Part shown: positions 3,432 to 32,366 of the stretch, piece by piece
Layout: each line of letters begins with the position of its first letter
How positions within the stretch are numbered: position 1 is the stretch's first letter
Assembly (NCBI GenBank): GCA_009778965.1
Contig: WRFE01000007.1
Coordinates: 1-40,956, forward strand
DNA: 40,956 nucleotides
Reading direction: 5' to 3'
Origin: Candidatus Endomicrobium labiotermitis
Lineage (GTDB): Bacteria > Elusimicrobiota > Endomicrobiia > Endomicrobiales > Endomicrobiaceae
Notes under the pieces: generated by a model
Databases searched by the model: none
The model's input: only the letters and a program-made list of their open reading frames with translations
What the model was told of the DNA's origin: nothing
Position numbers and translations under genes: made by a program

Positions 3432-3459
3432 AATTGTTTTTTTGCATAGAGGGGTAAAA

Positions 3460-4065
3460 ATGATTTTGAAGAACAAATTAAATATTAAGAATCAGGTTGA
3501 ACTAAATAAATCCGAAGAAAAAATCAGCAAGCAAAAAGCAAAGCTGTTTTTTGATAGCGGTAAAATTAATAAAGTAAAAGTCGGGACTTTTGCCGGTCTC
3601 TGCCAGATACACAAGTTTTTATTCGGCAAAATTTACGATTTTGCGGGGAAAATACGAGAGGTAAATATTTCCAAGGGTAATTTTCGCTTTGCGCCGCTGA
3701 TGTATCTTAAACAATCGCTTAAAAATATAGATAAAATGCCGCAAAAGACTTTTGACGAAATTATAGAAAAATATGTTGAAATGAATATTGCCCATCCGTT
3801 CCGTGAAGGCAATGGTCGCGCAACAAGAATTTGGCTGGATTTAATACTCAAAAAGGAATTGAAAAAAGTTATTGATTGGAACAATGTTGACAAGTCCGAC
3901 TATCTTTCAGCAATGAAGCGCAGCCCCATAAAAGATGTTGAGATAAAGCAACTTCTTAAAAATGCCCTTACAGACAAAATAAACGAACGTGAACTTTTTA
4001 TGAAGGGTATAGATGTAAGCTATTACTACGAAGGCTATGACGAATTTAAGATAGAAGATTTATAA
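3460..4065 (+). CDS. fic: Fic protein adenylyltransferase, class III (C-terminal inhibitory motif)
   Basis: Fic enzymes transfer AMP from ATP to hydroxyl side chains of target proteins. The 201-residue protein has the full catalytic motif HPFREGNGR at residues 112-120. Near the C-terminus it has S187-YYY-E191-G192, which matches the (S/T)xxxE(G/N) inhibitory motif. Placement of that motif after the Fic core, and the short length, fit class III proteins such as the Neisseria meningitidis Fic, which self-inhibits by oligomerisation. GAGGGG just upstream is the likely ribosome site; a TTG six codons earlier is a less likely start. The next gene follows 17 bases downstream. The target protein cannot be deduced from sequence. 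Confidence 0.85.
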
Positions 4066-4496: not shown

Positions 4497-4637
4497 ATGC
4501 TGACTCTGATAACCATAATAATTTTGTTTAAGTTAATCGGCAATATGGTATCAACACCGGTATTAATAACTCTAATCCTTTTAACTTGTGCTTTGATTGG
4601 ATTTATGCTTTGGAAACATAAAAATAGGGGTAATTAA
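4497..4637 (+). CDS. Small two-helix membrane protein, 46 aa
   Basis: A short open frame between the 136-residue protein and the second Fic gene. It encodes two hydrophobic stretches (about residues 2-16 and 21-39) separated by a short polar turn, and ends in a basic tail KHKNRGN. Its stop codon overlaps the next ATG as TAATG, a typical coupling arrangement, and the AGGGG in its last codons (4626-4630) doubles as the ribosome site of the next gene. There is no clear ribosome site for itself, which lowers confidence. I do not recognise a family. Confidence 0.45.
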   Translation: MLTLITIIILFKLIGNMVSTPVLITLILLTCALIGFMLWKHKNRGN

Positions 4638-5704
4638 TGAGCCAAATAAAAAACTTTGAAGAGTATAAAAAACTTGGCGAACCCGATAAAGAGAAAAGAG
4701 CAGAAAACTGGCGAATCGCTATCGGACTTCAACAAGTCGATGGTCTTACACCGTCAAAACACCTAATTAAAATTGCAAAAGAAAATATTGAAGGCAAAAT
4801 TTCAATTGACGATGCGGGAAAGCAGATAGCTCGGTATTATAAAGAAAATCCGGCAAAAACTACAAAAGAAAAAGAGAATAAAGAAGCCGATGAAGTTTCT
4901 TCACGCGCTGCTAAATTATTGAGCAATAATACTTTCGTGTTTAGTCCCGCGGAATACATTGCAATTCATAAGTTTTTATTTATTGATATATTGGATTCTA
5001 TAACAGCGGGAAAAATCCGCGAATATGATATAAGCAAAGACGAACCCATATTAAATTGGGATTCTGTGAGCTATGGCAGAGCAAACAGCATTAGAGAAAC
5101 GCTTGACTATGATTTTGCCCAAGAAAAGGCATTTAGTTATAAAGGTCTGACCAAACAAGAAAAGGTAGAACATATAGTAAAATTTATGTCAGGTATTTGG
5201 CAAATACACCCATTTGGCGAAGGCAACACACGTACAACAGCGGTATTTATAATTAAATATCTACGGACTCTCGGTTTCAAGGCGAATAATGATTTGTTTG
5301 AGGAAAATTCTCTATATTTTCGTAATGCGTTGGTTAGGGCTAATTATAATAATCTTGAAAATGGTATTTATGAAACAATGGAATATCTAAACAGATTTTT
5401 TGGAAATCTGTTGTTGGGAGAAAAAAACGTACTAAATAACCGCGATATGCAAATCAAAATTGGTGACATTGAAAACAAATGCCCAGAAAACACCCAGAAA
5501 ACGCCCAGAAAACATCCAGAAAACGCCCAGAAAATTTTAGATGCTCTGGCAATTAATCCATCCGCAAGCCGCCAAGAATTAGCCAAAACTCTTAGAATGA
5601 CCGAAGATAGGGTAAAGTGGAACATAAATAAACTTCGTGAGGCTGGCACAATCCGGCGTGTTGGACCGGACAAAGGCGGGCATTGGGAAATTATAAAGAA
5701 CTAA
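4637..5704 (+). CDS. fic: Fic adenylyltransferase with VbhA-like N-terminus and C-terminal winged helix
   Basis: A 355-residue protein in three parts. Residues 20-70 (GLQQVDGLTPS, then IEGKISIDDA and YY) resemble the antitoxin VbhA-like region often fused to Fic enzymes; the acidic residue of VDG (D35) is the best candidate for the inhibitory acid, but the canonical Ser/Thr four places before it is Leu. The Fic core has HPFGEGNTR at 191-199 (T in place of the second G, as in other N-type members). Residues about 285-355 look like a winged helix (SRQELAKTLRMTEDRVKWNI, then LREAGTIRRVG), suggesting DNA binding. Core and winged helix are joined by a linker encoded by five 11-bp tandem repeats (5481-5534). 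Confidence 0.85.
   Translation: MSQIKNFEEYKKLGEPDKEKRAENWRIAIGLQQVDGLTPSKHLIKIAKENIEGKISIDDAGKQIARYYKENPAKTTKEKENKEADEVSSRAAKLLSNNTFVFSPAEYIAIHKFLFIDILDSITAGKIREYDISKDEPILNWDSVSYGRANSIRETLDYDFAQEKAFSYKGLTKQEKVEHIVKFMSGIWQIHPFGEGNTRTTAVFIIKYLRTLGFKANNDLFEENSLYFRNALVRANYNNLENGIYETMEYLNRFFGNLLLGEKNVLNNRDMQIKIGDIENKCPENTQKTPRKHPENAQKILDALAINPSASRQELAKTLRMTEDRVKWNINKLREAGTIRRVGPDKGGHWEIIKN
5481..5534 (+). repeat. 11-bp tandem repeat, about five units, inside the Fic gene
   Basis: Units are gcccagaaaac, acccagaaaac, gcccagaaaac, atccagaaaac and gcccagaaaa. Because 11 is not a multiple of 3, the encoded linker cycles through frames, and gain or loss of one unit would shift the frame before the winged-helix domain. 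Confidence 0.9.
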
Positions 5705-15508: not shown

Positions 15509-17065
15509 ATGCCTACAGCATTGCTTAGCGTTTCGGACAAAGCCGGTATTTTGGAGTTTGCAAAAGAGTTAAAATCTTTAGGTTGGGACATTATTTCAAG
15601 CGGGGGAACTGCGAAAACGCTTAAAGACAACAAAATAGACTGTACGGAAATATCGGAAGTTACGGGATTTCCTGAAATTCTTGACGGCAGAGTTAAAACT
15701 TTAAACCCTAAAATACACGGCGGGATTTTGGCAATAAGGGACAATGCAGACCACCAAAACCAGCTTAAAAAGCACGGCATAGGCGCGATAGACATTGTTG
15801 CCGTAAACCTTTACCCTTTTGAAGAAACAATCAATAAAATACCTAAACCGGAAGATAAAAAAATAAATCAGGACATAATTGAAAATATAGATATCGGCGG
15901 CGTGGCTTTACTTAGAGCCGCGGCAAAAAACTTTAAAGATGTTTTGGTTATATGCGAACCTGCGGACTATCAAACTGTAATTGACGGTTTAAAAAATAAA
16001 ACTATAACCGATGAAACAAGGCTTGCGCTTGGAGCAAAGGCATTCAGACATACAGCGTATTACGATTCTTTAATTTCAAACTATCTTACTTATGAAAAAT
16101 TTCCTACACAGGCAGCCATACCTTTAAAGAAGCTTTCCGGTATGAGATACGGGGAAAATCCTCATCAGGAAGCTGCTTTGTATGGCAACGGAATAGAAAA
16201 AGATAAACCTGCCGTAATATCGGCAAAACAATTGCACGGCAAAGAGCTTTCATATAACAACTATCTTGATTTAGAAGCGGCGTGGAGGCTTGTAAATGAG
16301 TTTACAGACCCTGCCTGCGCGATAATAAAGCATAATAACCCTTGCGGCTGCGCGGAAGGACAAAACGTAAAAGAAGCCTATTTAAAGGCTTTAGCGTGCG
16401 ACCCTGTAAGCGCTTTCGGCGGAATAATAGCTTTTAACAAGCCTGTTGAAGAAAATGTCGCACATGAACTTGCAAAACTTTTTGTAGAGTGCGTAATAGC
16501 GCCGGATTATTCTAAAACCGCATTAGACATACTTATGCAGAAAAAGAATATCAGGCTTTTAAAACAGGAAATACCTTATAAAGAAGAAAAGAATGCGATG
16601 GAATACAGAATGATGTCTTACGGAATGCTTGTGCAGGACAGAGACAACAGTCTTTCTGCCGAAGTTAAAGATATGACAATGCGTAAACCTACTAAAGCCG
16701 AAAGTGAAGCTTTGGATTTCGCCTGGAAAGTATGCAAGCATGTAAAGTCCAACGCTATTATTTTGGTAAGAGGCAGACAAACTGTCGGAATTGGCGCGGG
16801 ACAGATGAGCCGTATTGATTCTTTACAAATAGCGTTAAAAAAGATGCGTGAAGCAGTAATAGGAATTGACGAAAAAGAATTTAATTTGGTTTTGGCTTCG
16901 GACGCTTTCTTTCCTTTTCCCGACGTTGTTTTGGAATCCGCAAAAGCGGGGATTACGGCTATAGTACAGCCCGGCGGATCCATTAAAGACCAGGATTCAG
17001 TCAATGCCGCAAACGAAAACGGAATTGCAATGGTTGCGACAGGAATGAGGCATTTTAAACATTGA
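15509..17065 (+). CDS. purH: Bifunctional AICAR formyltransferase / IMP cyclohydrolase PurH
   Basis: PurH performs the last two steps of IMP synthesis: formyl transfer from 10-formyl-tetrahydrofolate to AICAR, then ring closure. The 518-residue protein has the N-terminal cyclohydrolase domain (LLSVSDKAGILEFA, then SSGGTAKTL and VTGFPEILDGRVKTLNPKIHGG) and the C-terminal transformylase domain (RYGENPHQEAALY near 213-225, HNNPCGCA near 275, DAFFPFPD near 467). Length is close to the usual 510-530. AGGAG precedes the ATG at 8 bases. It starts a region rich in purine and pyrimidine genes. Confidence 0.96.
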   Translation: MPTALLSVSDKAGILEFAKELKSLGWDIISSGGTAKTLKDNKIDCTEISEVTGFPEILDGRVKTLNPKIHGGILAIRDNADHQNQLKKHGIGAIDIVAVNLYPFEETINKIPKPEDKKINQDIIENIDIGGVALLRAAAKNFKDVLVICEPADYQTVIDGLKNKTITDETRLALGAKAFRHTAYYDSLISNYLTYEKFPTQAAIPLKKLSGMRYGENPHQEAALYGNGIEKDKPAVISAKQLHGKELSYNNYLDLEAAWRLVNEFTDPACAIIKHNNPCGCAEGQNVKEAYLKALACDPVSAFGGIIAFNKPVEENVAHELAKLFVECVIAPDYSKTALDILMQKKNIRLLKQEIPYKEEKNAMEYRMMSYGMLVQDRDNSLSAEVKDMTMRKPTKAESEALDFAWKVCKHVKSNAIILVRGRQTVGIGAGQMSRIDSLQIALKKMREAVIGIDEKEFNLVLASDAFFPFPDVVLESAKAGITAIVQPGGSIKDQDSVNAANENGIAMVATGMRHFKH

Positions 17066-19033: not shown

Positions 19034-19822
19034 ATGGCAAAACGCTTTGATAAAACATACAAAATCATTTCAAATAAAGAATTATGCGCGGACTATTTTG
19101 AGCTGAAAATAAAAGCTGATGCGGAGATAATTAAAGCTTGTAATCCGGGTCAATTTTTTATGATTTCAGCGCCGGGTGTTTTTTTACGCCGTCCGATAAG
19201 CATACACGACGCGAAAAACGGCATTATTTCTTTTTTGTATAAAATTGTGGGAAAAGGCACAAAAATATTGTCCGAGATACAATCGGGTGAAATTTCAATG
19301 CTTGGTCCTTTAGGCAACGGTTATAATGTTTCCGCTGTTTCTAATCCGGTTATAGTTGCAGGCGGCACAGGCATTGCTTCCGTACACTTCTTAGCAGTTA
19401 AGCTAAAAAACAAGGGAACCTTGTATTACGGCGCGAAAACAAAAAAAGATTTGTTATGCTTAGACAAATTCAAAAAAGCTGGCTGGAAAATTATTGTTTC
19501 CACCGAAGATGGTTCAAAAGGTTATAAAGGGTTTATTACAGAAGCATTAAAAGAAAAAATTACGAATTACGAATTACAAATTACGAATGATAAATCAGCG
19601 GCAATACAAAAACCGATTCTATACGTTTGCGGACCGACGCCAATGATGAAAGCGGTTATAAAAATAGCAAAAGAAAAAAATATAAACGGATATGCCTCTC
19701 TTGAAGAAAAAATGGCATGCGGTATAGGCAACTGCCAAGGCTGCGCGGTAAAAGTATCCGGTAAAACCAAAATGACGTGCAAAGACGGTCCTGTATTTAG
19801 AATAGAGGATATTGAGATATGA
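19034..19822 (+). CDS. pyrK: Dihydroorotate dehydrogenase electron transfer subunit PyrK
   Basis: PyrK carries FAD and a [2Fe-2S] cluster and passes electrons from class 1B dihydroorotate dehydrogenase to NAD. The 262-residue protein shows the FAD-binding RRPISIHD region near 52-59, the VAGGTGIAS nucleotide-binding motif near 110-118, and the cluster ligands CGIGNCQGC plus a later Cys (MTCKDGP) in the last 40 residues. A segment near residues 177-187 (ITNYELQITND) is encoded by a dispersed repeat (19559-19590), absent from typical PyrK as I know it. pyrD follows after an intervening Fic gene. Confidence 0.92.
   Translation: MAKRFDKTYKIISNKELCADYFELKIKADAEIIKACNPGQFFMISAPGVFLRRPISIHDAKNGIISFLYKIVGKGTKILSEIQSGEISMLGPLGNGYNVSAVSNPVIVAGGTGIASVHFLAVKLKNKGTLYYGAKTKKDLLCLDKFKKAGWKIIVSTEDGSKGYKGFITEALKEKITNYELQITNDKSAAIQKPILYVCGPTPMMKAVIKIAKEKNINGYASLEEKMACGIGNCQGCAVKVSGKTKMTCKDGPVFRIEDIEI
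19559..19590. repeat. 'attacgaatta' repeat inside pyrK
   Basis: Four tandem variants of attacgaa/attacaa. Bases 19572-19590 are identical, in reverse complement, to 58-76. It is translated in frame between the nucleotide-binding part and the CGPTPMM motif of PyrK. Confidence 0.65.
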
Positions 19823-20538
19823 GTATTCTTTCCAAATTAGCGGAAGAAAAATCCATCAAACTTAAAGGCGGATTATATCATCAGTCTCAAGTAAGATTTT
19901 GTTATAATTCAAACCGTATAGAAGGCAGCCGTTTATCAGAAGAACAAACCCGTTATATATTTGAAACAAATACTATCAACACGGCTTCGGACGATACGGC
20001 AAATGTTGATGATATTATTGAAGCAGCCAGTCATTTCACGTGTTTTGATTATATGATTGACACGGCAAGCAAAGATTTATCGGAAGATATAATTAAAGAG
20101 TTTCACCGCATATTAAAATCTAACACTTCGGATTCGAAAAAAGAATGGTTTAATGTCGGGAATTATAAATCCAAGCCAAATATGGTCGGCGATATGGAAA
20201 CAACTGCGCCGAAAGATACAGCTAAAGCGATTTCCGATTTGCTTGTTTCGTATAACGGCAAGCAGGCTGTTTCTTTTGAAGATATAGTCGAATTTCATTA
20301 CCTGTTTGAAAAGATACATCCGTTTCAAGACGGTAACGGACGCGTCGGCAGGATGATAATGTTTAAAGAGTGCCTAAAGTTTGGCGTTATGCCTTTTATT
20401 ATAGATGAACGACACAAACTTTTTTATTACAGAGGCTTGAAAGAATTTAAAACTGCGCCCGGGTATCTTTTAGACACATGCCGTTCCGCGCAAGACGTAT
20501 ATGAAAAACTTGTGATGTATTTTGAGGATAAGCAATAA
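19819..20538 (+). CDS. fic: Fic adenylyltransferase, class II (N-terminal inhibitory motif), in pyr operon
   Basis: A 239-residue Fic enzyme. The catalytic motif HPFQDGNGRVGR is complete at residues 157-168. The inhibitory motif S31-NRI-E35-G36 precedes the core, which places it in class II, where an N-terminal helix blocks ATP until relieved. The gene overlaps pyrK by 4 bases (ATGA) and ends one base before pyrD, so it is translated as part of the pyr operon. The target is unknown; a role in controlling a nucleotide enzyme is inference from position. Confidence 0.88.
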   Translation: MSILSKLAEEKSIKLKGGLYHQSQVRFCYNSNRIEGSRLSEEQTRYIFETNTINTASDDTANVDDIIEAASHFTCFDYMIDTASKDLSEDIIKEFHRILKSNTSDSKKEWFNVGNYKSKPNMVGDMETTAPKDTAKAISDLLVSYNGKQAVSFEDIVEFHYLFEKIHPFQDGNGRVGRMIMFKECLKFGVMPFIIDERHKLFYYRGLKEFKTAPGYLLDTCRSAQDVYEKLVMYFEDKQ

Positions 20539-22305: not shown

Positions 22306-22881
22306 ATGGATCAAAACGAAGTCAAAGAACTATTCAAAAAGAATAACGCGTTGTTAAACGGACATTTCAAACTTTCAAGCGGCTTGCATTCGGACACTTA
22401 CTTTCAGTCGGCATTGATTATACAGCATCCGGCAGAAACCGAAAAACTCGCGAAAGAGCTTGCGAAAAAGATTAAAGAAAGCAACATTAAAGTTGACGCT
22501 GTAGTTTCTCCTGCTATGGGCGGGGTTATTATAGGGCACGAAATGGGCAGAGCCTTAGGCACGCGTGCGGTATTTACCGAAAGAGTTGACGGAGCTGTAA
22601 CGCTTAGAAGAGGTTTTTCAATAGAAAAAGGCGAAAAAGTTGTGGTTGTAGAAGATGTTATTACTACCGGACTTTCCACGCAGGAAGTTATAGACGCTTT
22701 GAAAAAATATGAAGCAGATGTGGTTGCGGTGGTTTCTCTTGTTGACAGAAGCGCCGGAAAAGTTGATTTTGGCGTTCCTAGGTTTTCATTACTGAGCCTT
22801 GATGTGAAAAGTTATAAAGAAGAAGAATGCCCTATGTGCAAAGACGGCGGCACGGCAATAAAACCGGGAAGCAGGAAATAA
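22306..22881 (+). CDS. pyrE: Orotate phosphoribosyltransferase PyrE
   Basis: Joins orotate and PRPP to give OMP. The 191-residue protein has the FKLSSGLHSDTYFQSA start region, the AMGGVIIGHEMGRALG block and the PRPP-binding motif VVVEDVITTGLST near residues 109-121. A C-terminal ECPMCKDGG...PGSRK tail is typical of one bacterial PyrE group. A GGAG site 6 bases upstream supports the ATG. It follows pyrF after the repeat at 22197. Confidence 0.95.
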   Translation: MDQNEVKELFKKNNALLNGHFKLSSGLHSDTYFQSALIIQHPAETEKLAKELAKKIKESNIKVDAVVSPAMGGVIIGHEMGRALGTRAVFTERVDGAVTLRRGFSIEKGEKVVVVEDVITTGLSTQEVIDALKKYEADVVAVVSLVDRSAGKVDFGVPRFSLLSLDVKSYKEEECPMCKDGGTAIKPGSRK

Positions 22882-23040: not shown

Positions 23041-23081
23041 GACTATGCATGTCAGAAGATAATTCCGAAAGGAAAAACAAA

Positions 23082-24044
23082 ATGGCAATTACTTACAAAA
23101 AAGCGGGCGTAAACATTGACGCAGGAAATGAACTTGTTAAAAGAATAAAAAAGAAACTTCCGAAAATCGGCGGTTTCGGCGGATTATTTCCTATTGACGG
23201 GACAAAATATAACCTTGTCAGCTCCACAGACGGCGTTGGGACAAAACTAAAAATCGCTTTTCTTGTAAATAAACACGATACCGTAGGCATAGACCTTGTA
23301 GCTATGAACGTAAACGACCTAATTTGCGTTGGCGCGAAACCGCTTTTCTTCTTAGATTATTTTGCCTGCGGAAAACTTAATGTAGGACAGGCTGAAAACG
23401 TTATAAAAGGAATCGCAAAAGGCTGCGAAATCTCAGGTTCACAGTTAATCGGCGGGGAAACTGCCGAAATGCCGGGTTTTTATAAAGACGGCGAATACGA
23501 TTTGGCGGGATTTTCAGTAGGAATAATTGAAAAAGGCAAAGAAATTACCGGAAAAAATATAAAATCCGGTGACGTTATTATCGGTCTGCCGTCAAGCGGA
23601 CCTCACTCAAACGGATATTCTTTAATAAGAAAAGTTTTTTCAGAAGCGGAACTTAAAAAATACTCTAAAGAATTGCTTGCGCCCACAAAAATTTACGTTA
23701 AAGAAATTCTTGCAGCGTTAAAAAAGTTTAATTCAAAAAAACAAAATATTACGGGTATTGCGCATATAACAGGCGGAAGCTTTTACGATAAAATAGAAAG
23801 AATTTTACCTCAAAACGCAAGAGTTGTAATCGAGAAAAATTCATGGAATGTCCCGAAAGTTTTTAAACTTGTGCAGCAAAAAGGAAATGTCCCTGAAAAA
23901 GATATTTACAGAACACTCAATATGGGCATAGGTATGGTTGTTATAGTCAGACCTGAAGCTGCGCTTGCGGTAAAAAAATCCTTTAAAGGCGCGAAAGCAA
24001 TCGGTTACATTAAAAAAGGCGAACGCGGAGTGGAGATTATTTAG
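23082..24044 (+). CDS. purM: Phosphoribosylformylglycinamidine cyclo-ligase PurM
   Basis: Forms AIR from FGAM with ATP in purine synthesis. The 320-residue protein has the DGVGTKLKIA motif near 50-59, the DLVAMNVNDLICVGAKPLFFLDYFA block near 72-96, GGETAEMPGFY near 124-134 and GLPSSGPHSNGYSL near 164-177. Length is slightly below the usual 340-350. I start at ATG 23082 with AAAGGA upstream; the open frame back to 23049 comes from the repeat and leader sequence. Confidence 0.95.
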   Translation: MAITYKKAGVNIDAGNELVKRIKKKLPKIGGFGGLFPIDGTKYNLVSSTDGVGTKLKIAFLVNKHDTVGIDLVAMNVNDLICVGAKPLFFLDYFACGKLNVGQAENVIKGIAKGCEISGSQLIGGETAEMPGFYKDGEYDLAGFSVGIIEKGKEITGKNIKSGDVIIGLPSSGPHSNGYSLIRKVFSEAELKKYSKELLAPTKIYVKEILAALKKFNSKKQNITGIAHITGGSFYDKIERILPQNARVVIEKNSWNVPKVFKLVQQKGNVPEKDIYRTLNMGIGMVVIVRPEAALAVKKSFKGAKAIGYIKKGERGVEII

Positions 24045-24058
24045 TTTTGTCTTTAGTC

Positions 24059-24135
24059 GTCATTGCGAGCGAAGCGCGGCAATCCACTTTGCTTTTAAAA
24101 TGGATTGCTTCGTCGTTTCACTCCTCGCAATGACA
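24059..24135. repeat. TGTCA palindromic repeat between purM and purN
   Basis: Left arm GTCATTGCGAG to GCAATCCA, 14-base AT-rich linker, right arm TGGATTGCTTCGTCG to CTCGCAATGACA. The right arm is identical in the copy at 26921. Confidence 0.85.
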
Positions 24136-24171: not shown

Positions 24172-25506
24172 ATGAAAAAAATAGCGATATTAGCATCAGG
24201 CGGCGGTTCAAATATGCAGTCCATTGTGGATTCCGTTAAAAACGGAATTCTCAAAGGACTTGCCGAAGTTGTGCTTGTTATTTCAAATAATGCGAATGCT
24301 TATGCTCTGGATAGAGCGGCAAAAGAAAATATAAAAGCCGTTTGTGTTGAAAGAAAGAAGTTTTCCGATGAAAAATTGTTCAATGCCGAGATTTTAAAAG
24401 AGCTTAAAAACGCAAAAGCAGACATAGTCTGCCTTGCCGGTTATATGAGAATTGTCGGAAAAGACATTATAGACGCATATCCTCACAAGGTTTTAAATAT
24501 TCATCCTGCATTGCTTCCGAAATTCGGCGGCAAAGGAATGTACGGGCATCATGTTCATGCGGCGGTTGTTTCCGCTAAAGAAAAAAAATCAGGCGCAACA
24601 GTTCATTTTGCAGATGAGCATTACGATACGGGGAATATAATACTTCAGAAAGAAGTTCTTGTTCACAAAACTGATACCCCGGAAGACGTCGCAAAACGGG
24701 TTTTGGCAGTTGAACATCAAATTTATCCGGAAGCAATACGGAAAGTAATCAAAAGCCAAGACATAAAAGGCTATATAATTCACGTAAGAGGCGATTCGTT
24801 CCGTGAAAAACATATGAAAGGACAAATCAAAGATATAGGCATATTTTGTGATTTTGTGCTGGACGGAAATCAGGAAGATCTTACAAAAGAAGTTATTGAA
24901 AAAAATTTCGGCGACTGGTTTTTAAAAATTTTAAATCCCGGATGGAAAGACAACCATTTTAATTACGGAACGGCTTCCTGTACTTATAAGCATTTGCTGG
25001 GTTTCAGAGACGTTGTTAATAATAATCTTCCTTACGGAATAGCGTTTGAAAACGACATAATTTTAGACAAAAATTTCACCGAAATCATTTTCAAAGCATT
25101 AGATGAAATCAAAGCCCGTAATTTAAAAAACATCGTTATAAGCCTTGAAGATACCATGTTAAAGTATATCCCGAAAAGCAAAAGGGTAAAAGGGCAGCTT
25201 ATATACAGAAATCCCGGAATGATAAGATTTGCCGGAGCGTATCTGTTTGATTTGGAATTCGCAAAAAATATGATTAATCATGTCGACACAAAAGGCTGCG
25301 ATGATGTAATAGACTGGTATATAAACCGCAGAGACAAAGAAGGACTTATTGATATATACTGGCTTCATCCGACAATAGCCGCCGGCGGATCTGCGACCGG
25401 AGATATAGGTTCATATTTCGGTTTCAGAAGCCATGTCGGATTTTTAAGAAAAATCTCTTTTAAAGTTCAAAGAGCTTATAAAAAATTTTTATGGAATATG
25501 CGGTAA
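24172..25506 (+). CDS. purN: PurN formyltransferase fused to GT25-like glycosyltransferase
   Basis: A 444-residue fusion. Residues 1-192 are a complete glycinamide ribonucleotide formyltransferase: GGGSNMQSIVD near 10-20, and catalytic N109, H111 and D152 in NIHPALLP and HYDTG. This enzyme formylates GAR in step three of purine synthesis. From about residue 198 (GYIIHVRGDSFREKHMKGQ) the sequence resembles GT25-type glycosyltransferases (lipooligosaccharide and related sugar transfer): YGIAFENDIIL near 299-309 matches the acidic EDD-like motif, with a later AGAYLFD block. There is no stop or ribosome site at the junction. ATG 24172 has AGGATAT upstream. Standard PurN proteins end near 190-210, so the extra 245 residues are a true second domain. 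The GT25 call is moderate; the PurN call is strong. Confidence 0.82.
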   Translation: MKKIAILASGGGSNMQSIVDSVKNGILKGLAEVVLVISNNANAYALDRAAKENIKAVCVERKKFSDEKLFNAEILKELKNAKADIVCLAGYMRIVGKDIIDAYPHKVLNIHPALLPKFGGKGMYGHHVHAAVVSAKEKKSGATVHFADEHYDTGNIILQKEVLVHKTDTPEDVAKRVLAVEHQIYPEAIRKVIKSQDIKGYIIHVRGDSFREKHMKGQIKDIGIFCDFVLDGNQEDLTKEVIEKNFGDWFLKILNPGWKDNHFNYGTASCTYKHLLGFRDVVNNNLPYGIAFENDIILDKNFTEIIFKALDEIKARNLKNIVISLEDTMLKYIPKSKRVKGQLIYRNPGMIRFAGAYLFDLEFAKNMINHVDTKGCDDVIDWYINRRDKEGLIDIYWLHPTIAAGGSATGDIGSYFGFRSHVGFLRKISFKVQRAYKKFLWNMR

Positions 25507-26920: not shown

Positions 26921-27005
26921 GTAATTGCGAGACGGTGAAGCCGTCGCGGCAATCCACGTTACTTAAAAAATGGATTGCTTCGTCGTTTCACTCCTCGCAA
27001 TGACA
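26921..27005. repeat. TGTCA palindromic repeat after purB
   Basis: Left arm GTAATTGCGAG (one change from GTCA) to GCAATCCA with hairpin GACGG/CCGTC, linker CGTTACTTAAAAAA, right arm identical to that at 24059-24135. Confidence 0.8.
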
Positions 27006-27026
27006 GGCAATTTAAAAGGATTAGAA

Positions 27027-30000
27027 ATGAACAACAAAAAAGCAAACTATTTTTTGCAGGATGACGGAGCATTCGTAATTGAGAATTACAATAACGCGCC
27101 GGCGTTTTCAAGTTTTTTTCCTGGTATTGCGGGTCTTAAAGGCATTCCTTTATGGGCATTTTATGTAAACAGAGGACAGGGGATAGCTTCGTTTGGCATA
27201 AAAAATAAAAATTATTCCATAATGGAGTTTTATCCTGCTAATACTTCTTACAGCCTTGTTTCAACGTTCGGTTTCAGAACTTTCCTAAAGATAAAGAAGG
27301 GTAAAAAAGTTATCAATTATGAAGCGTTTGCCGTAAACCCAAGCTACGACGTTAAACAAACAATGTATATAACTTCATGCGATATGGCGATTGAAGAAAT
27401 AAATGAAACTCTCGGAATAAAAACAACAGTAAGATATGCTACGCTTCCTAATGAACCGATTGCCGCGATAATAAGAGCCGTAAGCGTTGAAAATATTTCA
27501 AAAGAAAACATCGAAATAGAAATAGCCGACGGTATGCCCAAACTCATACCTTATTATGTTAACCAGTGGGCGCAGAAGTTTATGAGCACGACAATCCAGG
27601 CGTGGACAACCATAGATAATTTTGAGAAAACCGGAAATCCTTTTTTTCGCTTAAAAGTTGATACTGCCGACAGCGCGGAAGTCGTAGAAATCAATGAGGG
27701 GAATTTTTATTTCGGATATAGCTCAAACGGCAAAAAAATTAAGAAAGCCGAAGTTGTTATAAATCCTGATGTTCTTTTCGGAAGCGATTTAAGTTTCGAA
27801 TACCCGAAAGAATTTTTCTCTAATGATAAAAATTTTAAATATCCGAAAAGCCAATTCGCGGAAAACAGATACCCTTGCGCGTTCGGATATTCATCCGAAA
27901 AGCTAAATTCTAAACAGAGTTTCACTTTTTATTCAATGGCAGGACATATCGACAGTACGGATTCTTTAAACTCTTTCGTCAAAAAAGCAGGTTCGGCAAA
28001 ATATTTTGAAGACAAAATAGAAGAAAACAAAAAACTTATAATAAATATTACCGAAAATGTCACTACGAAATCTTCTTTTGTAAATTTTGATAATTACTGC
28101 AAACAAATGTATCTGGACAACGTTTTAAGAGGCGGATACCCGATTACTTTTGAAGATTCGGGGAAAAAGACATCCTATTACGTTTACTCAAGAAAACACG
28201 GCGATTTGGAAAGAGATTATAATGATTTCCAGCTTTCGCCCAATTATTATTCCCAGGGAAACGGAAATTTCCGCGATATCAACCAAAATAGAAGAAAAGA
28301 TATCTTCTTTAATCCGGAAATCGGTTCTAACGCTTTAAAATATTTCTACAATCTTATTCAGATAGACGGAAACAATCCTCTTGTCGTGAAAGGCGCTTAT
28401 TTTGTTATGGACACGGGAAAACCGTACTATAAAGATATTGCAGCGCAGATAGAAGACAAAGCCGGTAAAGCAAAGCTTGAAAAGTTTTTTGCCAAAGGTT
28501 TTGAACCCGGACAGCTTGCGATGTTTTTACTTAAAGAAAAAATCAAAACAAAAATTAAACTTGAAGATTTTGTCGCAAAATGCGTTACTTCCGCTTTGGA
28601 AGTAAACGATGCGGAACACGGCGAAGGTTTCTGGGTTGACCATTGGACATACAATCAGGATTTGCTAGACAGTTTCCTTGCGATATATCCGGAAAAAGAA
28701 AACGAACTCCTTTTTAAAGATAAATCTTTCATATACTTTGACTGCAATCATTACGTTGTTCCGAGAGATCAAAAACATGTTTTATTTGAAGGAAAAGTAA
28801 GAAGATACGGAGCGGTAGCAAAAAGTAATGAAAAAGACGCGTTGATTAAATCGAGAAAAGTTAATCCTAACGCTTTAAGAACAGAAAACGGCAAAGGCGA
28901 AGTATATAAAAACACTTTGGCTTCAAAGTTTTTAGCGATGATAACGATTAAAATGTCAACGCTTGATCCAGACGGAATCGGTATAGAAATGGAATCCGAT
29001 AAACCCGGCTGGTACGATTCGCTTAACGGTTTGCCGGGGATTTTCGGCTCATCAACCTGCGAAACGTTTGAACTTAAACGCTTTGCAATGTATTTCAAGG
29101 ATGTATTAAGTAAAAATCCCGGTGAAAAAATTTCTCTGCCTTCAGAAACTGCTGAATTGCTTTCGGAAATTTCAAAACTCCTTAAATCAAAAATTTCATC
29201 TTTTGACTTCTGGAACAAAGCTTCGGAAATAAAAGAAAAATACAGAGAAAGCGTTGTGATGGGAATAAAAGGCAGCGAAAAAACATTTTCTTCTAAAGAA
29301 GTAATTGAATTTTTGGAAAATGTTTTAAAGAAAATAAACGAAGGCTTAAAAAAAGCTGTTGACGTAAAAACAGGTTTGTACTACACTTACTTCAAGTATG
29401 AAGCTGTGAAATATAAACAGATAAATTCAAAAAATATTAAAGGACTGCCGTGCGTCAGAATAGACTCGTTTAAACGTTTTCCTCTTCCGTTATTTTTAGA
29501 AGGCGAAGTGCATTATATGAGATCGGAAACGGATAAAGAAAAAGTCTTAAAACATATTCAAAATATGAGAAACAGCGGCGTTTATGATAAAAAACTCAAA
29601 ATGTTTAAAGTCAACGAATCTTTAAACAGCGAAAGCCTTGAAATAGGCAGAACAAGAGTTTTTAACCGCGGCTGGCTTGAAAACGAATCCGTATTTTTAC
29701 ACATGGCGTACAAGTATTTGCTTGAAATTCTAAAAGCAGGTCTTTATGACGAGTTTTTTAAAGAGATAAAAACCGGATTTGTGTGTTTTACTGATCCGAA
29801 AATTTATAAAAGAAGCATTCTGGAAAATTCTTCTTTTATATGTTCAAGCGCTTTTCCGGATGCTGACAATCACGGCAGAGGATTTATTGCAAGACTCAGC
29901 GGTTCGACGGTAGAATTTATAGATATGTGGCTCAGAATGACCGTAGGCGCTAAGCCTTTTTCTTATAAAAACGGGGAACTTTGCTTTGAATTAAAACCGG

Positions 30001-30242
30001 TGATAAATTCGGCGTTTTTCGATAAAAGCGGAAATTTTTCGTTTAAATTGTTTAGTAATACGGAAGTTACTTATATAAATCCGTCAAAAAAGAGCACTTA
30101 TTCAAAAGATGCAGAGATTAAAAAAATTGAAATAGTATGGAACAACGGTAAAAAGCAGATTGTTGACGGTAAAGTTATTAAAGGAAGCGACGCTTCAAAA
30201 ATAAGAGAAGTTCAGGCGAAGTCGCTGAAAGTATATTTTTAG
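27027..30242 (+). CDS. Large GH94/cellobiose-phosphorylase-like protein
   Basis: A 1071-residue protein without signal peptide, so probably cytoplasmic. The N-terminal ~370 residues are beta-rich and the rest helical, the layout of GH94-type phosphorylases (beta-sandwich, then (alpha/alpha)6 barrel). The block RKHGDLERDYNDFQLSPNYY near 388-407, followed by GNFRDINQNRRKD, is the part I associate with the COG3459 cellobiose phosphorylase-like group; the FWVDHWTYNQDLLDSFL block near 535 also looks like a barrel active-site wall. I cannot name the catalytic Asp or the substrate. AAAAGGA at 27014-27020 fixes the start. Three exported glycosidases follow, suggesting beta-glucan or cello-oligosaccharide metabolism. 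Confidence 0.6.
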   Translation: MNNKKANYFLQDDGAFVIENYNNAPAFSSFFPGIAGLKGIPLWAFYVNRGQGIASFGIKNKNYSIMEFYPANTSYSLVSTFGFRTFLKIKKGKKVINYEAFAVNPSYDVKQTMYITSCDMAIEEINETLGIKTTVRYATLPNEPIAAIIRAVSVENISKENIEIEIADGMPKLIPYYVNQWAQKFMSTTIQAWTTIDNFEKTGNPFFRLKVDTADSAEVVEINEGNFYFGYSSNGKKIKKAEVVINPDVLFGSDLSFEYPKEFFSNDKNFKYPKSQFAENRYPCAFGYSSEKLNSKQSFTFYSMAGHIDSTDSLNSFVKKAGSAKYFEDKIEENKKLIINITENVTTKSSFVNFDNYCKQMYLDNVLRGGYPITFEDSGKKTSYYVYSRKHGDLERDYNDFQLSPNYYSQGNGNFRDINQNRRKDIFFNPEIGSNALKYFYNLIQIDGNNPLVVKGAYFVMDTGKPYYKDIAAQIEDKAGKAKLEKFFAKGFEPGQLAMFLLKEKIKTKIKLEDFVAKCVTSALEVNDAEHGEGFWVDHWTYNQDLLDSFLAIYPEKENELLFKDKSFIYFDCNHYVVPRDQKHVLFEGKVRRYGAVAKSNEKDALIKSRKVNPNALRTENGKGEVYKNTLASKFLAMITIKMSTLDPDGIGIEMESDKPGWYDSLNGLPGIFGSSTCETFELKRFAMYFKDVLSKNPGEKISLPSETAELLSEISKLLKSKISSFDFWNKASEIKEKYRESVVMGIKGSEKTFSSKEVIEFLENVLKKINEGLKKAVDVKTGLYYTYFKYEAVKYKQINSKNIKGLPCVRIDSFKRFPLPLFLEGEVHYMRSETDKEKVLKHIQNMRNSGVYDKKLKMFKVNESLNSESLEIGRTRVFNRGWLENESVFLHMAYKYLLEILKAGLYDEFFKEIKTGFVCFTDPKIYKRSILENSSFICSSAFPDADNHGRGFIARLSGSTVEFIDMWLRMTVGAKPFSYKNGELCFELKPVINSAFFDKSGNFSFKLFSNTEVTYINPSKKSTYSKDAEIKKIEIVWNNGKKQIVDGKVIKGSDASKIREVQAKSLKVYF

Positions 30243-30374: not shown

Positions 30375-32366
30375 ATGAGACTATTAAAAATAACAATTAT
30401 TTGCGCGTTATTGTTTTCTTTTTCGCAAGGTTACAGCGCTAACGGCACGGATCCCAGACTTAAAAAAGTCTTGGATACGGCTGAAAAATATAATAATACA
30501 GTTCTTGCTTACGTTCCGCCGCCGCCTTTTGAGATTTGCGATCCCGGAACAGACGAATGGATTGATTATGAAAAATACGGAAAGTTCAGCGGGCTGGGAA
30601 CAGATAAATATGAATATAAAATAACCGATCTTAAAGGTATTATCGATGCGTCCGGAGAGGGAATCTATCCGAATACTAAAAGCGTTTTAAAATCCCGCGC
30701 TTTATCCCAATATTTAAAAGATAACAAAAAACGTAAGCTTTCCGAGTTAAACTCCGTGAAATGGGACGATTATCAGGGAAATTTTTATAAATGGTCTTTG
30801 TATAAAGAAGAACACCCAGGAGTAATTCTTTTTATGACCGCTAATGCCCTTGAAAAATCCGGAAATATTAAACATGCTATAAAAGCATATTATTCCGGTC
30901 TTGTTTTCTTTCCGAAAGCAGTAGGCTGGACGCAATGGGGAACTCCTTGGTACGTAGCTCCCGTATGTCTTGCGAAAATAAAATATCTTACCCGTGAACA
31001 TCCCGAAATAGGCATTAAACTTGAAGGCGAAAGTTTAATAATCAAAAATGGGTTTGACAATGACATTACAAATGATGTGTTTCTTATAAATCCCGGAAAA
31101 CTTGTTCCCGCTACGGAAAAAGATTTTAAAATGAAAACCGAAGATTTATCTAAAATGCCTTTCAAAAGAATAGCAGGAAAAGGAAAAGTCAAACTTATAC
31201 GTTATCAAAACGGTCATTTTGCTTTAACTGTAAATGACAAGCCTTATATTGTAAAAGGGATTTCATACAGTCCCAGCAAAACAGGTCTGTCGCCGGATTT
31301 CGGAACGCTTAATAATTTACGCGACTGGACTTATGACGATTACAACAAAAACGGCAGAATAGACGGACCGTATGACTCATGGGTTGATACAAACAGAAAT
31401 GAAAAACAAGACAAAAACGAGCCTAACATCGGCGATTTTGCCCTTATGAAAGAAATGGGAGTAAATACTTTGAGGATATATCATTTCGACGGGCTTAATA
31501 AAGATCTGCTCAAAGAAGGCTATGAAAAGTACGGTTATATGTATATGATCGGAGATCTTATAGGAATGTATACAATCGATTCCGGCGCGGATTGGTATAT
31601 AGGCACGGATTATACGAATCCGACACAGAAAAAAAATATGCTTGAAAGCGTCAAACGTATGGTTTTGGAATACAAAGATAAACCTTATGTTCTGATGTGG
31701 GTTTTAGGAAATGAGAATAATTACGGCGCCGTAACCGACGGGCATACTCCTGGTTCCGGCTGTCTTGCCCAGGAACAGCCTGAAGACTATTACAGATTCG
31801 TCAACGAATGCGCAAAACTTATAAAAATGCTTGACCCGCATCAAAGACCTGTTGCAATTTCAAACGGCGATACATATCTTTTGGATTATTGCGTAAAATA
31901 TGCTCCCGATATTGATATATTCGGCGCGAATGTTTACAGAGGGGATTACGGCTTTGGTTCTATTTGGAAAGATGTTTTAAGAGAATATTCAAAACCTGTT
32001 TTAATAACCGAATACGGCTGTCCCGCTTACGCGGTAGATTGGAGCACGGCAAGAATAGAACATGAACAGGCCGCCTACCACAAAAACAACTGGATAGACA
32101 TTAGAAATAATACTGCAGGAGTTGTCGGCGGAACAGGGAACGCTTTAGGCGGAGTTATTTTTGAATGGACCGACGAATGGTGGAAATCCGGATATACATT
32201 CAGTCCGCATGAACATACTACAGTTTCCCAATGGCAGGGACCATTTTTAGACGGTCACGCTTATGAAGAATGGTTCGGAATATGTTCTATAGGAGACGGA
32301 GAAGATTCACCCTTTAAAAGACAGCTCCGCAAATCTTATTTTGTTTATAGAAACCTATGGAAATAG
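30375..32366 (+). CDS. Exported clan GH-A glycosidase (GH2 TIM-barrel-like), paralogue 1
   Basis: A 663-residue secreted glycosidase. A signal peptide ends near residue 22 (GYSA). Residues about 30-230 hold an extra domain with a TPR-like segment (GVILFMTANALEKSGNIKHAIKAYY cut at several helices). The catalytic half, from about 265, is a TIM barrel with the acid/base E447 in GNENNYG and the nucleophile E546 in ITEYGCPAY, the clan GH-A pattern. Residues 321-349 carry two calcium-loop-like motifs (DYNKNGRID and DTNRNEKQD). The specific GH family and substrate cannot be stated. A paralogue follows after the tRNA. Confidence 0.75.
   Translation: MRLLKITIICALLFSFSQGYSANGTDPRLKKVLDTAEKYNNTVLAYVPPPPFEICDPGTDEWIDYEKYGKFSGLGTDKYEYKITDLKGIIDASGEGIYPNTKSVLKSRALSQYLKDNKKRKLSELNSVKWDDYQGNFYKWSLYKEEHPGVILFMTANALEKSGNIKHAIKAYYSGLVFFPKAVGWTQWGTPWYVAPVCLAKIKYLTREHPEIGIKLEGESLIIKNGFDNDITNDVFLINPGKLVPATEKDFKMKTEDLSKMPFKRIAGKGKVKLIRYQNGHFALTVNDKPYIVKGISYSPSKTGLSPDFGTLNNLRDWTYDDYNKNGRIDGPYDSWVDTNRNEKQDKNEPNIGDFALMKEMGVNTLRIYHFDGLNKDLLKEGYEKYGYMYMIGDLIGMYTIDSGADWYIGTDYTNPTQKKNMLESVKRMVLEYKDKPYVLMWVLGNENNYGAVTDGHTPGSGCLAQEQPEDYYRFVNECAKLIKMLDPHQRPVAISNGDTYLLDYCVKYAPDIDIFGANVYRGDYGFGSIWKDVLREYSKPVLITEYGCPAYAVDWSTARIEHEQAAYHKNNWIDIRNNTAGVVGGTGNALGGVIFEWTDEWWKSGYTFSPHEHTTVSQWQGPFLDGHAYEEWFGICSIGDGEDSPFKRQLRKSYFVYRNLWK

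What the first reader, a model, noticed from the sequence alone, without database searches (positions are those of the whole stretch)
24172..25506. PurN fused in frame to a GT25-like glycosyltransferase
The PurN half keeps all catalytic residues and the gene lies among purine genes, yet 245 residues of glycosyltransferase-like sequence follow without a stop. I know of no standard PurN of this design. Possible meanings are a recent gene fusion tolerated because both parts are needed, or a bifunctional protein linking formyl transfer to sugar modification.
Basis: partly seen in the sequence, partly recalled or inferred. Interest (0 to 1): 0.72.

Follow-up and report, generated by a model that had tools for sequence, protein, structure and literature searches.

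The report
PurN enzyme fused to sugar transferase
In a termite-gut Endomicrobium relative, a purine-making enzyme and a surface-sugar transferase are encoded as one continuous protein; the fusion is real and recurs in a second genus, but it looks like two independent enzymes joined end to end rather than a new kind of chemistry.

Summary
Window 24172-25506 (+) is one open frame of 444 codons: PurN (TIGR00639 194.7 bits, cut-off 150.1) joined directly to a Pfam glycosyltransferase-25 domain (41.2 bits, cut-off 24). It is not a sequencing error: another Endomicrobium genome assigned to a different genus (G004, Im510_bin129) has the same fusion, 69% identical over all 444 residues, with the same gapless junction. 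Among 95 genomes of the class these are the only two fusions. A congener (G003, Ca. Endomicrobium embiratermitis) has the same gene pair split: 5 extra bases exactly at the junction put the two halves in different frames, with an ATG and a GGAGG for the second. The other GT25 relatives found are stand-alone genes. In the two fused genes no good start codon exists for a separate GT25, so one ~50-kDa protein is expected. PurN is the genome's only GAR transformylase; both halves are under purifying selection. Best reading: a GT25 gene landed behind purN, an insertion-prone spot, and lost its own start; the enzymes work independently. A formyl-transfer/sugar link is not supported. New domain architecture, modest interest.

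The parts
24172..25506 (+). purN-GT25 fusion gene, 444 codons plus stop
   Evidence: same architecture in G004
24172..24762 (+). PurN (GAR transformylase) half, residues 1-197; NIHP at 109-112, DTG at 152-154
   Evidence: TIGR00639 194.7 bits over cut-off 150.1; motif positions; alignment to solved GAR transformylases; Foldseek top hits GAR transformylases
24730..24780 (+). junction: PurN C-terminal helix runs straight into GT25 strand 1 (KVIKSQD|IKGYIIHV), no linker; place of the 5-nt length difference seen in G003
24763..25503 (+). GT25 half, residues 198-444
   Evidence: PF01755 41.2 bits over cut-off 24; alignment A1; profile hits GT25 structures 8xc8, 8xlz
23049..24044 (+). purM, upstream neighbour
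   Evidence: TIGR00878 391.9 bits
25613..26914 (+). purB, downstream neighbour
   Evidence: TIGR00928 511.7 bits
15509..17065 (+). purH, separate gene in the same window
   Evidence: TIGR00355 614.5 bits

Best explanation
The gene makes one ~50-kDa polypeptide with two complete and chemically unrelated enzymes. The N-terminal half is the cell's only GAR transformylase (purine step 3). The C-terminal half is a GT25 glycosyltransferase, probably adding a sugar (galactose is the common GT25 donor sugar, recalled) to lipopolysaccharide or another surface glycan. A GT25 gene was inserted directly behind purN, in an operon whose purN flanks repeatedly take up glycosyltransferase genes, and the two were joined head to tail at the natural end of PurN and the natural start of GT25. 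The fused GT25 has no good start of its own and therefore rides on purN translation. The enzymes most likely act independently; the covalent link is tolerated or neutral, as suggested by the split pair in G003, which probably arose from a fused ancestor by a 5-nt tandem duplication at the junction. Shown here: frame, domains, junction, relatives, lack of good internal starts, purifying selection. Inferred: single product in the cell, independent action, LPS role, direction fused-to-split.
For: Both halves over curated cut-offs in window and G004. G004 fused end to end, 69% identity, same junction length. In 1349 aligned columns of three genomes the only indel not a multiple of three is the 5-nt one of G003, exactly between the domains. 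Stand-alone PurNs end at the same place (193-200 residues in the 26 extracted) and stand-alone GT25s begin a few residues before GYIIHV. In-frame ATG/GTG/TTG near the junction: only TTG178 (no clear Shine-Dalgarno) and ATG215 (past strand 1) in the window; none between codons 144 and 250 in G004. dN/dS about 0.1 for PurN and 0.2 for GT25 (NG86). purF, purD, purM, purB, purH present, no purT over cut-off. GT90 gene between pyrF and purN in G002; GT2 and GtrA genes between purN and purB in G017.
Against: No expression or protein data. All assemblies may be MAGs (those named are). The direction fused-to-split is unproven: the GT25 tree is an unresolved three-way star, and G001, G002 and G017 lack the GT25 behind purN, which demands losses or transfer. 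GT25 sites do not repeat the PurN relationship (PurN 105/46/41 against GT25 79/74/68 shared sites for pairs G000-G003/G000-G004/G003-G004), so the GT25 half may have moved on its own. The GT25 models are of low confidence.
Confidence: 0.75

Rival explanations
1. Two products: a separate GT25 is also made by internal initiation or proteolysis, so the in-frame joining has little meaning in the cell.
For: TTG at codon 178 of the window would give a complete GT25 with a 20-residue PurN tail; in G003 the GT25 starts inside purN with GGAGG four bases before its ATG.
Against: TTG178 has no clear Shine-Dalgarno stretch and is TTA in G004, which has no ATG/GTG/TTG between codons 144 and 250. Proteolysis cannot be judged from sequence.
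Confidence: 0.13
2. A truly bifunctional protein: formyl transfer and glycosyl transfer are coupled, for instance by formylating an amino sugar that the GT25 then transfers.
For: Sugar N-formyltransferases share the fold and match weakly (PRK07579, ArnA, PseJ, VioF); the fusion occurs in two genera.
Against: The PurN equivalog cut-off is passed while every sugar formyltransferase model listed is far below its cut-off; it is the only GAR transformylase found, in a purine operon; the pair is split in G003, and stand-alone GT25 and PurN are the rule.
Confidence: 0.05
3. The GT25 tail is a decaying passenger with no enzyme activity.
For: FEND stands where the Bacteroidetes relative L061 has FEDD; patchy distribution; GT25 changes amino acids faster than PurN.
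Against: dN/dS about 0.18-0.25 over all three pairs, indels in multiples of three within the domain, and FEND is invariant in all seven rows of A1, stand-alone relatives included.
Confidence: 0.05
4. Sequencing or assembly error removed a stop or shifted the frame between two genes.
For: The congener G003 has two frames with a stop after PurN.
Against: Independent fused homologue in G004 with the same junction.
Confidence: 0.02

Closest known systems
Bacterial PurN (TIGR00639, GAR transformylase)
   Same: Full-length domain over the equivalog cut-off, motifs kept, purine operon context, sole copy
   Different: Carries a C-terminal GT25 domain; the 26 stand-alone PurNs extracted from relatives stop at 193-200 residues
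Glycosyltransferase family 25 (PF01755; solved 8xc8/8xgx and procollagen galactosyltransferase 1)
   Same: Over Pfam cut-off; profile matches GT25 chains at 3.5e-11; weak fold match to 8xgx at E 4.6e-3 from a low-confidence model
   Different: Lacks its own good start codon and is fused behind PurN; FEND instead of FEDD
PurN-PurH fusions (Halobacteria PurN-PurH1, PMC3261824 passages; other Elusimicrobiota families)
   Same: PurN C-terminus joined in frame to a second enzyme
   Different: There the partner is a purine enzyme using the same folate; here it is a surface-glycan enzyme
Eukaryotic trifunctional GART (PurD-PurM-PurN; PDB chain titles)
   Same: PurN as part of a multi-domain protein
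   Different: PurN is C-terminal there and all partners belong to the purine pathway (recalled)

Membership tests
PurN (GAR transformylase) | TIGR00639 equivalog score over curated cut-off | tested here: met
   194.7 against 150.1 bits
PurN (GAR transformylase) | Catalytic Asn-x-His and the DTG aspartate (roles recalled) | tested here: met
   NIHP 109-112 and DTG 152-154 aligned with 3av3
PurN (GAR transformylase) | Formyl transfer from 10-formyl-THF to GAR | not testable with these tools
   Needs assay or complementation
GT25 | PF01755 over gathering score | tested here: met
   41.2 (window), 48.3 (G004), 68.2 (G003), 51.4 (G002) against 24 bits
GT25 | Acidic EDD/DxD-like donor/metal motif (recalled) | tested here: inconclusive
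   FEND at 292-295, invariant in A1; Glu and last Asp kept, middle residue Asn
GT25 | Predicted fold like solved GT25 | tested here: inconclusive
   Model pLDDT 53.5; best PDB hit 8xgx, E 4.6e-3
GT25 | Transfers a sugar to LPS or another glycan | not testable with these tools
   No donor or acceptor evidence
Purine-enzyme fusions of PurN | Partner is a purine-pathway enzyme | tested here: not met
   Partner is GT25; purH is separate at 15509-17065

The most novel reading that the evidence does not exclude
The fusion is a selected device in termite-gut Endomicrobia that ties the amount (or place) of a surface glycosyltransferase to de novo purine synthesis, and can be switched between one- and two-protein forms by a short length change at the junction, as in G003.
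Probability: 0.06. Interest if true: 0.7.

Novelty: new variant of a known kind. Interest (0 to 1): 0.34.

Why it matters
It is a clear case of a housekeeping enzyme tolerating fusion to an unrelated surface-glycan enzyme, with fused, split and empty states preserved in close relatives, so the birth and undoing of a gene fusion can be followed at base level. It also warns annotators: a PurN label hides a glycosyltransferase. If the coupling were selected, it would link nucleotide synthesis to surface modification in gut symbionts; nothing here shows that.

Tried and rejected
Sequencing error: rejected by G004. Internal start for GT25: no good candidate, none shared by both fused genes. PurN as sugar formyltransferase: models far below cut-offs. 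Fusion or GT25 spread by phage: the viral scan gave 0 relatives among 23 pattern matches. Tree to date the fusion: GT25 star unresolved; a first PurN tree had minus-strand loci read on the wrong strand and was discarded for that, in which a G000+G004 clade (p-AU 0.198) and a G000+G003+G004 clade (p-AU 0.319) are not rejected. Alignment A3 placed GT25-only rows wrongly and was replaced by A4. The GT25-alone model was poor, so its fold search carries little weight. Inverted-repeat pattern for the repeat upstream of purN: 0 matches in the genome, even at the window copy, i.e. badly chosen. Paper searches found no report of a PurN-glycosyltransferase fusion (listings; open-licence PMC library only). 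PMC11257099 on Endomicrobiaceae (abstract, term search, sections 6 and 9 read) has no hit for glycosyltransferase, purine or fusion in its main text. PMC4177761 (passages only) had nothing on such fusions.

Full report
Observation. The stretch 24172-25506 (+) translates without a break into 444 residues. Residues 2-189 match Formyl_trans_N (179.9 bits) and 199-371 match Glyco_transf_25 (41.2 bits, cut-off 24); the PurN equivalog model scores 194.7 bits against a cut-off of 150.1, while deformylase, fmt and sugar formyltransferase models stay far below theirs. The mechanical ORF begins 24 codons earlier, inside a 61-nt repeat with a 93% copy at 26945-27005; homologues begin at the Met of 24172. 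Neighbours are purM upstream and purB downstream, and purH lies separately at 15509-17065.

Is the PurN half needed? In the 1.89-Mb assembly (107 contigs, 99.97% complete) PF00551 gives 2 hits: this gene and a 331-aa frame that I read as fmt. The purT model gives 4 weak hits, none over its cut-off. purD and purF are over cut-off. So the fused gene is the only GAR transformylase found in a genome that has the surrounding pathway genes tested. The genome has 1 PF01755 hit, this gene.

Relatives. In 60 relatives and 95 class genomes, only G000 (window) and G004 match the query end to end. G004 is fused: L033:5061-6404, 447 codons, 69% identity, both domains over cut-off. Its contig length (19391) equals that of JAISLV010000220.1, Endomicrobium sp. 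Im510_bin129, so I equate them; likewise G003 with WQYI01000001.1, Ca. Endomicrobium embiratermitis (411946 bases). G003 is split: purN L034:4435-5034 (199 codons) and GT25 L034:5001-5762 (253 codons), overlapping by 34 nt, with GGAGG four bases before the GT25 ATG. G001 and G002 of the same genus, and G017 of G004's genus, have no GT25 behind purN: in G001 and G002 purB follows directly, in G017 other genes intervene. G001's purN is cut by a contig break (residues 1-119 on C7, 164-199 on C46), and G017's is known only by its tail at a contig end. Of 76 genomes in the family search, 7 have this GT25 type: 2 fused, 1 split and adjacent, 4 elsewhere. A scan of genome contigs gave 7 loci, 6 Elusimicrobiota and 1 Bacteroidetes; the two not already seen, L057 and L061, are stand-alone. 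By my reading of the ORF lists, untested by models, the stand-alone copies in G014 and L057 sit beside heptose/Kdo and dTDP-rhamnose genes, which points to LPS.

Junction. Aligned as DNA, the window and G004 have no gap at the junction and G003 has 5 extra bases there, in a CCAGACCAGACC stretch that looks like a short tandem duplication. In 1349 columns the other indels are 9, 15 and 6 bases, so the one frame change falls exactly between the domains and leaves both whole. Stand-alone PurNs end at the same point (193-200 residues in the 26 extracted), and the stand-alone GT25s of G002, G027, G018 and G014 begin 4 to 7 residues before the conserved GY. The model of the fusion (pLDDT 71.2, pTM 0.62; most PurN blocks 75-94, most GT25 blocks 35-78) runs PurN's last helix (170-195) into GT25's first strand (198-203) with no linker.

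One product or two? In-frame ATG, GTG or TTG near the junction are TTG178 and ATG215 in the window; in G004 none lies between codons 144 and 250. A separate complete GT25 is therefore unlikely in G004 and possible only from a poor TTG in the window.

Selection and history. NG86 gives dN/dS of about 0.10-0.12 for PurN and 0.18-0.25 for GT25 among the three genomes, with dS 0.8-2.1, hence partly saturated. The PurN tree groups G000 with G003, then G001, then G004 (supports 95/74, 89/73, 92/84). The GT25 tree leaves G000, G003 and G004 as an open star. Sites shared by two of three are 105/46/41 in PurN and 79/74/68 in GT25 for the pairs G000-G003, G000-G004 and G003-G004. So the GT25 half either evolved faster after the split or was exchanged between lineages. 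Fused-as-ancestral with a later split in G003 needs the fewest frame changes, but also needs loss of GT25 in G001 and G017 or transfer; I hold it at about 60%.

Setting. The purN flanks take up glycan genes elsewhere: a GT90 gene between pyrF and purN in G002, GT2 and GtrA genes between purN and purB in G017, and in G004 a 378-aa gene of unknown kind between purM and purN. PurN fusions are not strange in this phylum: in 340 genomes many PurN hits sit in frames of 480-1114 codons (best rows only listed); I fetched 7 loci, and 6 of 7 have PurH following in the same frame, the seventh (L069) being an ordinary PurN. PurN-PurH1 fusions are in print for Halobacteria (PMC3261824, passages). In those cases the partner is a purine enzyme; here it is not.

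Mechanism. Most likely two independent enzymes on one chain: GAR formylation by the first half and transfer of a sugar to a surface glycan by the second, with GT25 output tied to purN translation by loss of its own start. The split in G003 and the stand-alone relatives suggest that neither half needs the other. No tool here can show activity or a single product in the cell.

Verdict. The fusion is real, in two genera, not found described in the library searched, and probably without new chemistry.

Noticed in passing
L066-L068, L070-L072 (other Elusimicrobiota families): PurN fused in frame to PurH in 6 of 7 long-frame PurN loci fetched; the phylum-wide list suggests this is common outside the window's class.
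   Followed up: partly
24075-24135 and 26945-27005: 61-nt direct repeat, 93% identical, upstream of purN and downstream of purB; it supplies spurious in-frame starts (MDCFVVSLLAMT) to both following ORFs.
   Followed up: partly
3442-4062, 4637-5701, 19819-20535: Three Fic-domain genes; the third sits in the pyr operon just before pyrD, and a like gene is there in G003.
   Followed up: no
26970-30242: 1090-aa ORF behind purB, with like ORFs behind purB in G001 and G017, has no Pfam hit; it is followed by a GH2-like protein (30375-32366).
   Followed up: no
22306-22881: pyrE of the window is closer to G001 (88.5%) and G004 (82.7%) than to G003 (81.4%), unlike purM, pyrD and PurN: the operon looks mosaic.
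   Followed up: no
L033:3925-5061: 378-aa gene without a family over cut-off inserted between purM and the fused purN in G004.
   Followed up: no
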